From assembly GCA_017484085.1 (NCBI GenBank), contig JAFUTW010000035.1:1-64000 (forward strand): a DNA stretch of 64,000 nt, read 5' to 3'. Positions 12,785 to 17,134 of this stretch are shown one piece after another (within the stretch, counting starts at the first letter, position 1; each line of letters opens with the position of its first letter). This DNA comes from Clostridia bacterium. Its GTDB lineage: Bacteria > Bacillota > Clostridia > Christensenellales > Aristaeellaceae. Below the pieces are notes generated by a model. It was not told the origin of the DNA. It searched no databases and saw nothing but the letters and a program-made list of their open reading frames with translations. The translations under genes and the position numbers were made by a program.

Positions 12785-12812
12785 TTGCAAATTCCCTGTA
12801 ATGTGGTATGAT
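12785..12812 (+). promoter_or_regulatory. Promoter of the DUF1858 gene
   Basis: TTGCAA (12785-12790), 16-nt spacer, TATGAT (12807-12812) preceded by TG as in extended -10 elements. It is followed by a strong ribosome site just before ATG 12843. Confidence 0.55.
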
Positions 12813-12842
12813 ATCTGCATTCCAACTGAGGAGGACAAAATC

Positions 12843-13073
12843 ATGGCTGAACAAGCTGCCAACACATACGTCACCAAAGACATGGTCATGGGCGACATCA
12901 TCCGCGCCTATCCCGCTGCCGCATATGCCCTGATGGGCTGCGGCATGGGCTGCGTCGCCTGCCCTTCCGCCGCCGGCGAGTCCCTGGAGGACGCCGCCGC
13001 CGTTCACGGGCTGGACGCCGACGAAGTCTGCGCTTTCGTCAACGACTGGCTGAAGGACAAGGTCCAGGCATAA
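12843..13073 (+). CDS. DUF1858 domain-containing small protein
   Basis: A 76-residue cytoplasmic protein. VTKDMVMGDIIRAYP, then GCGMGCVACP and SLEDAAAVHGLDADEV match the DUF1858 pattern, a small helical domain often fused to or encoded beside redox and iron-sulfur proteins (family knowledge). The conserved Cys pair GC-x2-C is present. The start is ATG 12843 after GAGGAGG. Function unknown; it is monocistronic with its own promoter and terminator. Confidence 0.85.
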   Translation: MAEQAANTYVTKDMVMGDIIRAYPAAAYALMGCGMGCVACPSAAGESLEDAAAVHGLDADEVCAFVNDWLKDKVQA

Positions 13074-13081
13074 GGCCCCCC

Positions 13082-13137
13082 AAAAAACAGACAACAGGCC
13101 GTCTCGCATGAGGCGGTCTGTTTATCTGTTTTGGGGT
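13082..13137. terminator. Bidirectional terminator module (copy 1)
   Basis: Hairpin with arms 13094-13105 and 13110-13121 and loop GCAT, flanked by AAAACAGA and TCTGTTTT. T-runs on both strands let it end the DUF1858 gene (plus) and the barstar gene (minus). An inverted near-copy is present at 17170-17222. Confidence 0.85.
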
Positions 13138-13416
13138 TTACGGTCTGCCCGTCCAGGTGAAAGCCGGACAGGCTTCCTCGGCATCGTCCAGCACGCGCCG
13201 CAGCCGCGGCCAGTACGCTTCCATCTCCGGCGTAAAGCGGGCGGGCAGCAGCAGCGTCAGCCGCATCGGCTTCGCGGTCTCCGTCAGGATGTCGTACAGG
13301 GCATCCAGATTGCAGCCGTACCACTCCGGTGCGCGCAGCACATACCCCAAGTAGACCTGCAGGGCGGCAGGGGTCGCGATGTTCCTGAGATCCGCAGTGA
13401 CTTCCCGCATGCTCAT
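13138..13416 (-). CDS. Barstar-family ribonuclease inhibitor
   Basis: A 92-residue cytoplasmic protein. WYGCNLDALYDILTE matches the barstar helix that plugs the barnase active site (Asp35/Asp39 equivalents both present). Start ATG 13416 overlaps the barnase gene stop as ATGA, so the inhibitor is translationally coupled to the toxin-like RNase. Its role is to protect the producing cell from the exported RNase before secretion (established for barnase/barstar). The frame extends upstream to 13545, but that part overlaps the barnase gene and is not barstar. Confidence 0.9.
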   Translation of the reverse strand: MSMREVTADLRNIATPAALQVYLGYVLRAPEWYGCNLDALYDILTETAKPMRLTLLLPARFTPEMEAYWPRLRRVLDDAEEACPAFTWTGRP

Positions 13417-14282
13417 TCCCCCTTCACTTCCGTAAAGCTCTTGTACTTGTCCCGGGTCAGGTAATACAGGCCGTCGTTGGACCAGATGAGCCGGTTCTTT
13501 CCGCGCTTCCCGTCCTCGCCCACATTGACGTCGCACTCGTGCCATTCGCGGCCCTCCGCCGCCGGCAGCAGCCCTTCCCGGTTGCCGAAGACGCCGCCGC
13601 CGATGGTGAACTCCGGCGCGACCTCGCCCATGTTGTCCCGCTTGGAGGAAAAGCCCAGTTCCTTCGCCTCATCCAGCGTGATGTAGTTGACGGGCAGCTC
13701 ATGATAGGCCATCAGATAGGCCGCTACGTCCTGCCAGGCGGTGTAGCACTCCCCGTAGGAGACCTTGGCGCTCGTCACCAGCGCACGCTTTTTAGATGCG
13801 CCAGGCGCAGCCGTCGCCGCGGCCTTCTCGGGGAAGACGACCGTCACTTCCTCAAAATTGCGGTAGTGATTGCCCGAATAGTAGATGAGGCCGTCGCTGG
13901 AGAAGCAGATGCGCTTGCCGCCCCGGTAGCCGCCCGAATAGTCGATGTCGCATTCCGTCCATCTGCGGCCCTTCGCGTCCGGCAGGGCGCCTTCGTAGTT
14001 GCCGAAGCGGTCGCCGCCGATGGAGCAGCCCTTTGCCACCTGCCAGAGGTTTCCCAGGCTGTTGTCCCAGCCGCGGTTCTGCGCCTCACGCTTGCTCAGG
14101 TAATTGCCGGGCAGCTTTCCGTAGGTCGCCAGGTATACGGAAACCTCTTCCTTGGTGGAGTACCAGCCGTCCTTCGTCACCGGGTAGCGCGAGGCATCCA
14201 CCGTCAGCGCCAGGGCGAAGGCCGGCAGCAGCAGCGCCAGCACAAGGGCGGCAAGTGACGCCACTCCTTTTCTCAGCCGCAT
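13413..14282 (-). CDS. Secreted ribonuclease with two tandem barnase domains
   Basis: A 289-residue exported protein: signal peptide (about 1-26), barnase-like domain 1 (about 30-148), an Ala/Lys linker, and barnase-like domain 2 (about 168-287). Domain 1 keeps the catalytic set aligned to barnase: K64 (K27), E110 (E73), R120 (R83), R124 (R87), H139 (H102). Domain 2 keeps E249, R260 and R264 but has L203 for K27 and K279 for H102, so it is probably catalytically dead. It does keep R235 where barnase has R59, which domain 1 has lost (Y96). Known barnases are single-domain, about 110 residues mature. The barstar gene follows with a 4-nt overlap. A promoter is at 14340-14368. Confidence 0.88.
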   Translation of the reverse strand: MRLRKGVASLAALVLALLLPAFALALTVDASRYPVTKDGWYSTKEEVSVYLATYGKLPGNYLSKREAQNRGWDNSLGNLWQVAKGCSIGGDRFGNYEGALPDAKGRRWTECDIDYSGGYRGGKRICFSSDGLIYYSGNHYRNFEEVTVVFPEKAAATAAPGASKKRALVTSAKVSYGECYTAWQDVAAYLMAYHELPVNYITLDEAKELGFSSKRDNMGEVAPEFTIGGGVFGNREGLLPAAEGREWHECDVNVGEDGKRGKNRLIWSNDGLYYLTRDKYKSFTEVKGE

Positions 14283-14554: not shown

Positions 14555-17134
14555 ATGAAACGTATGCTGTTCACTTTGGCGCTGGCCGCGCTGCTGACGC
14601 TTGCCCTGCCATGTTTGGCTGACACCGCCACTGGATGGTCATATACGGTCAATGCCAACGGCGAAGCCGTAATCAGCAAGTATACCGGCAGCGATACCCA
14701 CGTCGTCGTCCCCGAAGAGCTGAACGGCCATCCGGTTACGTCCATCGGCAGCAGCGCTTTCAGCAAGAATACGACCGTGGAGGAAATAGATATTCCCGAC
14801 TGCGTCACCGGTCTGGGTTCTTGGCAGACCTTTATGGGCGCAACGTCGCTGCAGCGCATCCGCCTATCGCAGTCTATTACTGCCATTCCCGATAATGCCT
14901 TCAACGGGTGTAAGGCGCTGACCGCAATCGACATTCCGGGGAGCGTAAAGTCCATCGGCGTCGGCGCGTTTTACGGCTGCTGGAAACTTACCGACGTCAC
15001 CTTCCACGAGGGGCTGGAAAGCATCGGGGATCAGGCCTTTTACAACTGCAAACTGCATGAGATCCGCTTCCCCGATACGCTGAACTCCATCGGCAGGGAA
15101 GTCCTCGGCGGCTCCATCCACGGGGACAACATCATTATCGCGGAGTTGGGATCCGACCTGTCCTGCTTTTTAAGCGGGAAAGGATACAGTATTACCGACC
15201 CGGATTATCCGCAGTTTGAGTTCCGCAACTGGGTGGATTCCGAAGGAAAACAGAACGTCTCTCTGGAATATGCCGATGAAACCCTTTCCGAAGTGGTCAT
15301 TCCCGATTTTGTCACCAGTCTCGCCAACGTCTTCCGTTCAAAGACCCCGAACGCAAAGAATACGGCGCTGACCTCCGTCACCATTCCGGAGAGCGTAACC
15401 TCCATCAGCGGCAGAACCTTTGCCGATTGCGTCAATCTGATCTCGGTGGAACTGCCTGACAGCATAACAACCATGGACGGTTCCATCTTCTCCGGCTGTG
15501 AAAGCCTTACGGATGTAAAGCTGCCGAAGGACCTGAAGACACTTCCCTACAGCCTGTTCTGGGAATGCACTTCGCTGAAGGAAGTCGATCTGCCGGAGAA
15601 CCTTGAGAAGATCTGGGGCGCCGCCTTCCAGCACTGCACAGCCCTTACGAAGATCGACATCCCGGAAAGCGTGACCTACATCGGACCCTATAACTTCGAG
15701 GGCTGCATATCCCTGACAGAGGTCCGTCTCCCCAAGGGGCTCGAAGACCTTTTCTATGAGGCTTTTCAGGGGAGCGGCATTTACAGCCTCACCATCCCGG
15801 AAGGCATCACGAAGCTGGACGATAAGCTGTGCCAGGGCTGCGAAAACCTCACCACCGTCGTGCTGCCCTCAGGCCTCACGGAGATCGCGGACACCGCCCT
15901 GCCCGACAGCGTTAAAACCGTATACGGCTACGGCGGAACCGTCGCCGAAACCTGGGCCGATGAGCACGACTGCCGGTTTATCGACCTTTCCGATCCCGGT
16001 TCCGCAGTGTCTCCGACCCTGCAGGTACCGGATCACGCCAATCTCGACAAAGGCGAACGCTGGAACTGGCGCAGCGCCGTCAGCATTGCCCCGGACCTCG
16101 GCGGCGAACCCATTGCCATCACCGCCGTGTCCAACAACCCTTCAGTTGCCGAAGTGGACGGCGACTATCTGATCTGCCATGAAACCGGCGAGGCCCTGCT
16201 TACGATTCTCGCCGGCACGGCGGATGGAAACAATATCCCCGGCCGCCTGCTGCGTGTCCGCGTCTGGCTTCCGGTGACGGATTATTCGGTCCCTTACTGT
16301 TACTATGTCGGCGAGAGCGAGCAGGACATGGCGGAGGACAAGGTGCGGCCCCAGGCGATTCAGCCGGAAGGCGCAAATCCGGAGTTTACCTTCTATTACT
16401 ACAGCTATACCGACGGTTACCATTACTTCACGGGAGATGCGCTGCAATTCACCCAGATCCCGGACATGGGGAGCGCCTACATGATCAGCCGCAGCGGCAT
16501 CAAAAAGTACTTCTCCGTCAACACTTACCAGGAATACCTGGGCTTCACGTTTGACGGGCCTTCCTTCAAAATTCACGTGGGCGACAGCGTTTATCCCAAT
16601 ACATACGCCCACCTGAAACGCGGTTCCTATGACGACTATACCGTCTCACCAGCCCCCTACATGCTCTCCTCGTCCAACCATGCGGTGCTTGCTCCCATCG
16701 GGGGAGATTCCACCGGCTTCCTGGCTCTGGCGCCCGGCCAGGCGGACATCACCGTCACGGATTTCAAGAACAAAGAGACCAAAGCCCTCACCTTCACCGT
16801 GCACGACATCCGCTACGACCTTATACTGCCTGAGGACGCCGTCGTCATCCGGAGCAGGGCATTTGCGGGTGCGACCTTTGAGTCCGTTTATCTGCCCCAA
16901 AGCTGCACCTCCATCGAGCCCCGCGCTTTTGAAGGCAATCGAAACCTGAACCGCGTGTACATCGCGAATCCGGATGCCATCGAGATTGCGAGCGACGCGT
17001 TCTACGGATGCTGGAACGTCACCCTCGACGTTCCCGTCGGCACAGGCACCGCCCTCCTCAGCCGCCTTGAAAGCCGCGACAACATGGGGTGGACGCCCAG
17101 GGTTGTCGAGGTGGAATACGCTCCGGAACGCTGA
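14555..17134 (+). CDS. BspA-type leucine-rich-repeat secreted protein
   Basis: An 859-residue exported protein. Signal peptide about 1-21 ending in CLA|D. Residues about 35-480 hold repeated LRR_5 (TpLRR) units of the form SIGxxAFxxCxxLxxIxIPxSV. Then come two Ig-like stretches around 490-590 and 680-780, and a short second LRR block near the C-terminus. No LPxTG-like sorting signal or C-terminal membrane anchor is seen. Such proteins usually mediate adhesion (family knowledge). Start ATG 14555 follows AAGGGG; the upstream frame to 14444 overlaps the promoter. An LRR/Ig-like relative is encoded at 19858-20724. Confidence 0.85.
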   Translation: MKRMLFTLALAALLTLALPCLADTATGWSYTVNANGEAVISKYTGSDTHVVVPEELNGHPVTSIGSSAFSKNTTVEEIDIPDCVTGLGSWQTFMGATSLQRIRLSQSITAIPDNAFNGCKALTAIDIPGSVKSIGVGAFYGCWKLTDVTFHEGLESIGDQAFYNCKLHEIRFPDTLNSIGREVLGGSIHGDNIIIAELGSDLSCFLSGKGYSITDPDYPQFEFRNWVDSEGKQNVSLEYADETLSEVVIPDFVTSLANVFRSKTPNAKNTALTSVTIPESVTSISGRTFADCVNLISVELPDSITTMDGSIFSGCESLTDVKLPKDLKTLPYSLFWECTSLKEVDLPENLEKIWGAAFQHCTALTKIDIPESVTYIGPYNFEGCISLTEVRLPKGLEDLFYEAFQGSGIYSLTIPEGITKLDDKLCQGCENLTTVVLPSGLTEIADTALPDSVKTVYGYGGTVAETWADEHDCRFIDLSDPGSAVSPTLQVPDHANLDKGERWNWRSAVSIAPDLGGEPIAITAVSNNPSVAEVDGDYLICHETGEALLTILAGTADGNNIPGRLLRVRVWLPVTDYSVPYCYYVGESEQDMAEDKVRPQAIQPEGANPEFTFYYYSYTDGYHYFTGDALQFTQIPDMGSAYMISRSGIKKYFSVNTYQEYLGFTFDGPSFKIHVGDSVYPNTYAHLKRGSYDDYTVSPAPYMLSSSNHAVLAPIGGDSTGFLALAPGQADITVTDFKNKETKALTFTVHDIRYDLILPEDAVVIRSRAFAGATFESVYLPQSCTSIEPRAFEGNRNLNRVYIANPDAIEIASDAFYGCWNVTLDVPVGTGTALLSRLESRDNMGWTPRVVEVEYAPER

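What the first reader, a model, noticed from the sequence alone, without database searches (positions are those of the whole stretch)
13138..14282. Tandem-domain secreted barnase with an inactive second domain, coupled to barstar
Seen: one signal peptide, then two barnase-like domains. Domain 1 retains all catalytic positions (K64, E110, R120, R124, H139). Domain 2 has Leu for K27 and Lys for H102 but keeps the guanine/barstar-binding Arg (R235) that domain 1 lost. A barstar gene overlaps by 4 nt. Known barnases are single-domain. Inference: domain 2 may be a substrate- or barstar-binding module, a decoy, or a receptor-binding part of a contact or diffusible toxin, with barstar giving immunity.
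Basis: partly seen in the sequence, partly recalled or inferred. Interest (0 to 1): 0.85.

Follow-up and report, generated by a model that had tools for sequence, protein, structure and literature searches.

The report
Secreted RNase fused to dead twin
A gut bacterium makes a secreted RNA-cutting enzyme of the barnase kind joined to a second, apparently dead copy of the same fold that evolution keeps intact; the second copy may act as a grip on RNA rather than a second blade.

Summary
Domain 1 has every catalytic residue but Tyr for Arg59. Domain 2 has Leu for Lys27 and Lys for His102 but keeps Arg59, Glu60, Glu73, Arg83 and Arg87.

It is neither unique nor a sequencing error. 33 of 308 genomes of the same bacterial family carry a tandem, and a 34th lies in a sheep-rumen MAG. 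In 34 of 34 exactly one domain keeps His102 and that one has Tyr59; the other lacks His102 and has Arg or Lys at 59. All 77 single-domain ORFs read in the main set keep His102. The dead domain is under purifying selection; the 28-member C-terminal kind was not found alone. It is not a recent copy of domain 1. The split arose perhaps two or three times, though a joint-clade test does not reject one origin.

Best reading: domain 2 is a pseudo-RNase kept as an RNA-binding module that anchors substrate for domain 1 (confidence about 0.5). A built-in dimer partner or a barstar-related role are the main rivals. No structure could be predicted and nothing was assayed.

The parts
13413..14282 (-). Tandem barnase gene, 289 aa: signal peptide, active-type RNase domain, linker, His102-less RNase domain
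14208..14282 (-). N-terminal signal-peptide-like segment, about residues 1-25 (basic start, hydrophobic core, Ala-X-Ala-like end)
   Evidence: read by eye from the translation; the cleavage site is inference; no signal-peptide predictor was run
13851..14162 (-). Domain 1, residues 41-144: barnase domain with K27/E73/R83/R87/H102 equivalents and Tyr at 59
13746..13850 (-). Linker, residues 145-179 (35 aa; 21-56 aa in the 33 tandems)
13431..13745 (-). Domain 2, residues 180-284: barnase family domain without His102 (Lys) and Lys27 (Leu); keeps R59, E60, E73, R83, R87
13138..13416 (-). Barstar gene, 92 aa, overlaps the RNase gene by 4 nt; keeps Asp35, Asp39 and an acidic residue at 76

Best explanation
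The locus is a secreted barnase-barstar pair in which the RNase carries a second, catalytically dead barnase domain. Shown here: two domains, one with and one without the catalytic histidine; the same division in every relative with two domains that I read; purifying selection on the dead domain; a barstar gene directly downstream in 33 of 33 tandem genes of the family. Inferred: domain 1 cuts RNA outside the cell; barstar protects the cytoplasm before export; domain 2 still folds as a barnase and binds guanine-containing RNA through its retained guanine loop (N58, R/K59, E60) and phosphate arginines (R83, R87) without cutting it, so that the flexible linker holds RNA close to domain 1, much as a carbohydrate-binding module holds substrate for a cellulase.
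For: (1) 33 of 33 family tandems plus L171 have exactly one His102-bearing domain. (2) 77 of 77 single ORFs keep His102, as do 71 of 71 single loci among the 80. (3) In seven close pairs that I picked, dN/dS of the dead domain is 0.026-0.187 (window vs L035: active 0.102, dead 0.078, barstar 0.176). (4) Of 24 positions at least 95% invariant in 110 active domains, 18 stay at least 90% invariant in the 28 C-terminal dead domains, including N58, E60, R83, R87; the six relaxed are 27, 35, 73, 98, 102, 103, four of them active-site positions. (5) Position 59 is Arg (31) or Lys (3) in 34 of 34 dead domains and Tyr in 34 of 34 active partners. (6) Lys at 104 in 23 of 33 dead and 0 of 33 active partners; cleft/rim charge higher in the dead than the active domain in 23 of 28 C-terminal and 3 of 5 N-terminal cases. 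(7) Precedent: barnase H102A is called a catalytically inactive mutant and was studied bound to d(CGAC) (PMC6306431, passages).
Against: No binding or activity was measured and no structure could be predicted. As a set, cleft positions in the dead domain are not significantly more conserved than the rest (mean entropy 0.80 vs 1.06, p = 0.19, after leaving out 27 and 102; p = 0.41 with them; barstar-contact set without 27 and 102 p = 0.27), whereas in active domains the cleft is (p = 0.006 tandem, 0.0008 single). R83, R87 and N58 may be kept for fold stability (recalled), so only E60 and 59 point clearly to a ligand. Rim charge is lower in the dead domain in 2 of 28 and 1 of 5 pairs, the five genus-g10 dead domains are not positive at the rim (mean -0.80; their partners -1.20), and the dead domains as a whole are acidic (mean -4.9 C-terminal, -7.2 N-terminal, against -2.1 for tandem domain 1). 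Independent events behind the 34 of 34 are few: one to three. In some wider pairs the dead domain evolves faster than the active one (L017-L075: 0.337 vs 0.058).
Confidence: 0.5

Rival explanations
1. Built-in dimer partner: domain 2 packs on domain 1 as the second subunit of a barnase-type dimer, raising activity or stability or making the enzyme hard for inhibitors to reach; it need not bind RNA itself.
For: Binase is reported as a natural dimer, with roughly 8-fold higher specific activity of the dimer band than the monomer band in a gel assay, and crystals in which one subunit's active site is blocked (PMC4281067, passages). Docking in PMC8837141 (passages) has barstar reaching only one of two sites in the binase dimer. 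A dead second subunit fits a dimer in which only one site works.
Against: Linkers vary from 21 to 56 aa and the order of live and dead domain is reversed in the five genus-g10 proteins and in L171, which suits independent modules better than one fixed interface. It does not by itself explain the retained E60 and basic 59. No interface could be mapped without a model.
Confidence: 0.22
2. Barstar-related module: domain 2 binds the cell's own barstar (extra safety before export), or a competitor's barstar as a decoy.
For: Arg59, Arg83 and Arg87 are listed barstar contacts (PMC8837141, passages; PMC11408511, passages) and are kept in domain 2, and domain 1 lacks Arg59. Barstar lies directly downstream in 33 of 33 tandems against 59 of 77 singles. 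Barstar position 38 is Tyr, Phe or Trp in 26 of 33 tandem and 18 of 57 single loci with the motif.
Against: H102 (33 of 33) and K27 (14 of 33) are gone. Every barstar hit is one domain and D35/D39 are kept with Tyr59 singles too. The position-38 association has only 2 independent pairs on supported branches and cannot reach significance. L171 has no barstar in its 6.3-kb locus; its genome's one barstar match lies on another contig.
Confidence: 0.15
3. Wall, surface or other ligand-binding module, or a part that helps folding or export, with the barnase cleft irrelevant.
For: In the same bacterial family other barnases carry other extra modules: a peptidoglycan-binding domain in L096 and a TPM domain in L036, so these enzymes do gain accessory domains.
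Against: Retention of the guanine-loop residues and of a basic 59 is unexplained.
Confidence: 0.08
4. Decaying relic without function.
For: His102 is replaced by seven different residues (G 11, K 7, N 7, A 4, Q, E and R one each, and one gap), as expected once the position is free. Three singles of genus g14 (L089, L115, L116) group with tandem domain 1 in the quick tree, so domain 2 has probably been lost there. Cleft positions as a set are not specially conserved.
Against: Low dN/dS in close pairs; both domains in one open frame in 33 genomes; invariant core and guanine-loop residues over 28 divergent copies.
Confidence: 0.05

Closest known systems
Barnase / binase (PF00545) with barstar (PF01337)
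   Same: Domain 1 aligns without gaps to barnase 6-109 (E 9e-30) and has all catalytic residues; RNase-then-barstar gene order.
   Different: Two domains in one chain, the second without His102; Tyr instead of Arg at 59 in the catalytic domain.
Binase natural dimer
   Same: Two barnase folds working as one secreted unit.
   Different: Here covalent and unequal: one live, one dead, rather than two copies of one chain (PMC4281067, passages).
Laboratory mutant barnase H102A
   Same: Loss of His102 with the rest of the site kept; the mutant was studied bound to d(CGAC) (PMC6306431, passages).
   Different: Natural, conserved, and fused to an active copy; Lys27 also relaxed.
Catalytically dead paralogue partners such as trypanosome prozyme
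   Same: A dead relative kept beside its live one (PMC5201418 and PMC3663545, starts of abstracts in the listing).
   Different: Those are separate proteins that activate the live one; here it is one chain, and no such effect was tested.
Polymorphic toxins with a C-terminal barnase domain and Imm-Barstar
   Same: Same toxin and immunity folds (PMC3482391, passages).
   Different: No long N-terminal trafficking or repeat region; short secreted protein.

Membership tests
Barnase family PF00545 (domain 1) | Profile match above the curated cut-off | tested here: met
   62.1 bits for the domain against a cut-off of 24
Barnase family PF00545 (domain 1) | Catalytic Lys27, Glu73, Arg83, Arg87, His102 | tested here: met
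   K64, E110, R120, R124, H139
Barnase family PF00545 (domain 1) | Guanine/barstar-contact Arg59 | tested here: not met
   Tyr96; but Tyr59 is usual here (67 of 77 single ORFs), so it does not exclude membership
Barnase family PF00545 (domain 1) | Guanyl-preferring RNase activity | not testable with these tools
   needs an assay
Barnase family PF00545 (domain 2) | Profile match above the curated cut-off | tested here: met
   46.9 bits against 24
Active barnase (domain 2) | Catalytic His102 and Lys27 | tested here: not met
   Lys279 and Leu203; homologous by sequence, predicted inactive
Barstar PF01337 | Profile match and the DxxxD inhibitory helix | tested here: met
   49.1 bits against 23.4; D38/D42 = D35/D39
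Barstar PF01337 | Inhibits the neighbouring RNase | not testable with these tools
   needs a binding assay
Polymorphic toxin | Long N-terminal trafficking, repeat or processing domains | tested here: not met
   289 aa; Pfam finds only PF00545 above its cut-off
Known anti-phage defence protein | Match in PADLOC-DB | tested here: not met
   no family at E up to 0.1 for either protein

The most novel reading that the evidence does not exclude
A barnase lineage has repeatedly turned one copy of its own enzyme into a dead, Arg59-bearing twin that defeats barstar immunity: the dead domain draws barstar away or shields the live site, so that the Tyr59 live domain can act in the presence of another strain's barstar. 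This would be a decoy domain within a diffusible antibacterial RNase.
Probability: 0.07. Interest if true: 0.85.

Novelty: new variant of a known kind. Interest (0 to 1): 0.6.

Why it matters
Barnase is a textbook enzyme for folding, catalysis and tight inhibition. A natural tandem in which one copy has lost the catalytic histidine, while its guanine loop and a basic residue 59 stay, gives an evolutionary test of which barnase residues serve binding and which serve chemistry. It also gives a compact pseudoenzyme system (one chain, one live and one dead domain, one inhibitor) in which substrate anchoring, dimer effects and inhibitor escape can be told apart with simple assays.

Tried and rejected
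Recent duplication of domain 1 as the source of domain 2: rejected for the window. In a tree without the trait columns the 28 C-terminal dead domains form one clade (100/100) apart from their own partners. Only L171 looks like a recent internal duplication (84 of 103 identical, sister domains 99/89).

Number of origins: open. The best tree without trait columns needs three changes between live and dead (C-terminal clade, genus g10, L171). Against this, the quick tree with all columns puts the 33 dead domains in one group (SH-aLRT 87) beside three Arg59 singles, and AU tests do not reject a single origin (p = 0.158 for 33 rows; p = 0.145 for 34 rows). Direction at residue 59 in L171 is open too: its nearest single relative L223 has Arg59 with His102, so Tyr59 may be the derived state there. 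With 19 of 103 positions differing in L171, finding 59 among the 18 besides 102 has a chance near 0.18 (my arithmetic), so that case alone is weak.

Cleft-conservation test: not significant for the dead domain; the cleft, rim and contact sets were recalled, not computed from a structure. Barstar position-38 association: too few independent pairs. Barstar contact residues as a sign of co-evolution with domain 2: none at 35, 39 or 76; one search printed only 24 of 33 tandem and 41 of 59 single barstars (my script kept only rows whose domain start matched the alignment's). Conserved neighbourhood: the two window neighbours (DUF1858 and LRR genes) have no BLAST match at 1e-5 in the other loci, most of which have only about 1.5 kb of flank. 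Plasmids: 4 of 72,556 records match, the best place being 354 bases, one domain's length; phages: no match among 50,697 records. NCBIfam: no family for the RNase at E up to 0.1.

Print: the searches listed no paper on a natural two-domain barnase by title or start of abstract; that covers only the open-licence library, and only some papers were opened, by passages (one search found none of my terms in PMC8625414).

Full report
WHAT IS THERE. On the minus strand, 14282-13413 encodes a 289-aa protein with a signal-peptide-like start (by eye) and two PF00545 domains. Its stop codon overlaps the start of a 92-aa barstar gene (13416-13138) by four bases. Domain 1 aligns to barnase 6-109 without gaps. 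Domain 1: K64, E110, R120, R124, H139 (barnase 27, 73, 83, 87, 102) with Tyr96 in place of Arg59. Domain 2: Leu203 for Lys27 and Lys279 for His102, with Arg235 (59), Glu236 (60), Glu249 (73), Arg260 (83) and Arg264 (87) kept. The window's genome (81% complete by the tool's table) has no other PF00545 or PF01337 match.

HOW COMMON. A search of 308 genomes of the same bacterial family found PF00545 in 231. I read 110 distinct RNase ORFs from fetched loci; that is not all of the 231 genomes, and it includes a few ORFs of other families. 33 are tandem and 77 single. The tandems lie in five genera: g1 6, g10 5, g12 8, g14 11, g15 3. A profile of the 28 C-terminal dead domains run over the same 308 genomes gave 28 hits at E 1e-48 or better, all in ORFs of 278-417 aa, and then a gap to 2.5e-44: this dead domain was not found alone. 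Five further genomes with more than one hit have them on different contigs. In samples of the class (57 of 391 genomes with a match, own included) and phylum (19 of 398, own included) no other genome listed two matches in one ORF. Pfam did miss the dead domain of three genus-g10 genomes (one match each there, two), so a divergent second domain elsewhere could be missed. Eight of the nine encode the same protein as a tandem already read (for example L147 = RUG12645 = L035); L171 (JAFXTM010000066.1, MAG RGIG6731, sheep rumen) is new. The record titles of the nine are all MAGs, most called Clostridia or Clostridiales; four titles name a source, three from roe deer (omasum, rumen, rectum) and one sheep rumen.

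THE RULE. In 33 of 33 tandems, and in L171, exactly one domain keeps His102. That domain has Tyr59 in every case. The other has Arg (31) or Lys (3) at 59. In the 33, His102 is replaced by G 11, K 7, N 7, A 4, and Q, E, R and a gap once each. In 28 the dead domain is C-terminal; in the five genus-g10 proteins and L171 it is N-terminal. All 77 single ORFs keep His102. So inactivation of one copy is regular, not an accident of this genome, and cannot be a sequencing error.

SELECTION. NG86 dN/dS in seven close pairs that I picked (active / dead / barstar): window-L035 0.102/0.078/0.176; L111-L113 0.028/0.026/0.092; L019-L082 0.071/0.098/0.114; L090-L092 0.081/0.142/0.129; L017-L074 0.099/0.187/0.189; L057-L075 0.052/0.095/0.101; L057-L073 0.073/0.126/0.113. 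The dead domain is constrained, usually somewhat less than the live one; some wider pairs show it clearly faster (L017-L075: 0.058 vs 0.337). The output was cut in the middle; these pairs were in view, and pairs with dS over 1.6 in either domain were left out by the script. Of 24 positions at least 95% invariant in 110 active domains, six are relaxed in the 28 C-terminal dead domains (27, 35, 73, 98, 102, 103) and 18 are kept, among them N58, E60, R83 and R87. Against this, cleft positions as a set are not significantly more conserved than the rest in the dead domain (p = 0.19 without 27 and 102, 0.41 with them), while they are in live tandem domains (p = 0.006) and singles (p = 0.0008). The cleft and rim sets are from recall.

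ORIGIN. With the trait columns left out, the 28 C-terminal dead domains are one clade (100/100) and are not sisters of their own partners. The five genus-g10 dead domains group elsewhere (100/98), and L171's two domains are each other's sisters (99/89; 84 of 103 identical). The best such tree needs three changes between live and dead. Against several origins: the quick tree with all columns groups all 33 dead domains (SH-aLRT 87), joint-clade tests do not reject one origin (p = 0.158 and 0.145), and there are under 100 columns. So two or three origins are likely, not proven. In L171 the differences include Y/R at 59, H/R at 102 and D/K at 104. The direction at 59 is open because the nearest single gene, L223, has Arg59.

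BARSTAR. A barstar domain begins within 45 bases of the end of the RNase ORF in 33 of 33 tandems, and a barstar is found downstream in 59 of 77 singles. Each hit is one barstar domain. In the 24 tandem and 41 single barstars printed, Asp35 and Asp39 and an acidic 76 are kept with Tyr59 singles as with tandems (exceptions: L114 has Glu at 39; L060 and L063 are cut off before 76). Two singles (L020, L123) do not fit the helix motif that I searched for. Position 38 is aromatic more often in tandems (26 of 33) than singles (18 of 57), untestable for want of independent pairs. L171 lacks an adjacent barstar; its genome has one on another contig.

HOW IT MOST LIKELY WORKS. Barnase H102A is described as catalytically inactive and was studied bound to d(CGAC) (PMC6306431, passages read). 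A barnase domain without His102 but with N58, R/K59, E60, R83 and R87 is therefore expected to bind and not to cut. Lys at 104 (23 of 33 dead, 0 of 33 live) and a more positive cleft rim in 23 of 28 C-terminal and 3 of 5 N-terminal cases fit binding of a polyanion, although the genus-g10 rims are not positive in absolute terms and the dead domains as a whole are acidic. Barstar is itself acidic, so charge alone does not separate RNA from barstar; loss of Lys27 and His102, both barstar contacts (PMC11408511, passages), tilts towards RNA. The linker of 21-56 residues and both domain orders suit an independent anchoring module. In the same bacterial family other barnases carry other accessory modules (PG_binding_1 in L096, TPM in L036). 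The main rival is a built-in version of the dimers reported for binase and its relatives (PMC4281067 and PMC8837141, passages).

KNOWN OR NEW. The parts are known (PF00545, PF01337). No title or abstract start listed by the searches describes the conserved live-plus-dead tandem; they cover only an open-licence library. I class it as a new variant of a known kind.

Noticed in passing
L096:2573-3589 (minus), genus g31 genomes: A barnase behind a hydrophobic N-terminal segment and a PG_binding_1 domain (E 8e-19), suggesting a wall-anchored RNase; the long g31 ORFs L065 and L098 have similar N-terminal parts by eye.
   Followed up: partly
L036:3116-4408 (plus): A barnase domain at the C terminus of a 431-aa ORF whose N-terminal part matches TPM_phosphatase (PF04536, E 2e-8).
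   Followed up: partly
L217:475-3330 (plus): 952-aa ORF with a C-terminal barnase domain and no other Pfam match at E 0.01; a barstar match lies in the same locus. Looks like a large toxin.
   Followed up: no
L016, L038, L045, L047, L049, L052, L058, L059, L062, L064, L068, L079, L084, L085, L093, L094, L095, L103: 18 of 77 single-domain barnases with no barstar found in the fetched locus, many of them in genera g25, g27 and g7; one (L085) ends 175 bases after the gene.
   Followed up: no
window 13851-14162 (minus), domain 1: Tyr at barnase position 59 in active enzymes: 67 of 77 single ORFs and 33 of 33 live tandem domains, where barnase has Arg; may mark weaker or different barstar contact.
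   Followed up: partly
window 14558-17134 (plus): 858-aa BspA-type leucine-rich-repeat protein (LRR_5, E 5e-88), divergently oriented next to the RNase gene.
   Followed up: no
window 13078-13136: Nested inverted repeats between the convergent DUF1858 gene (12801-13073, plus) and the barstar gene: arms CCCCAAAA/TTTTGGGG and AAAACAGACAA/TTATCTGTTTT; may be a shared two-way terminator.
   Followed up: partly
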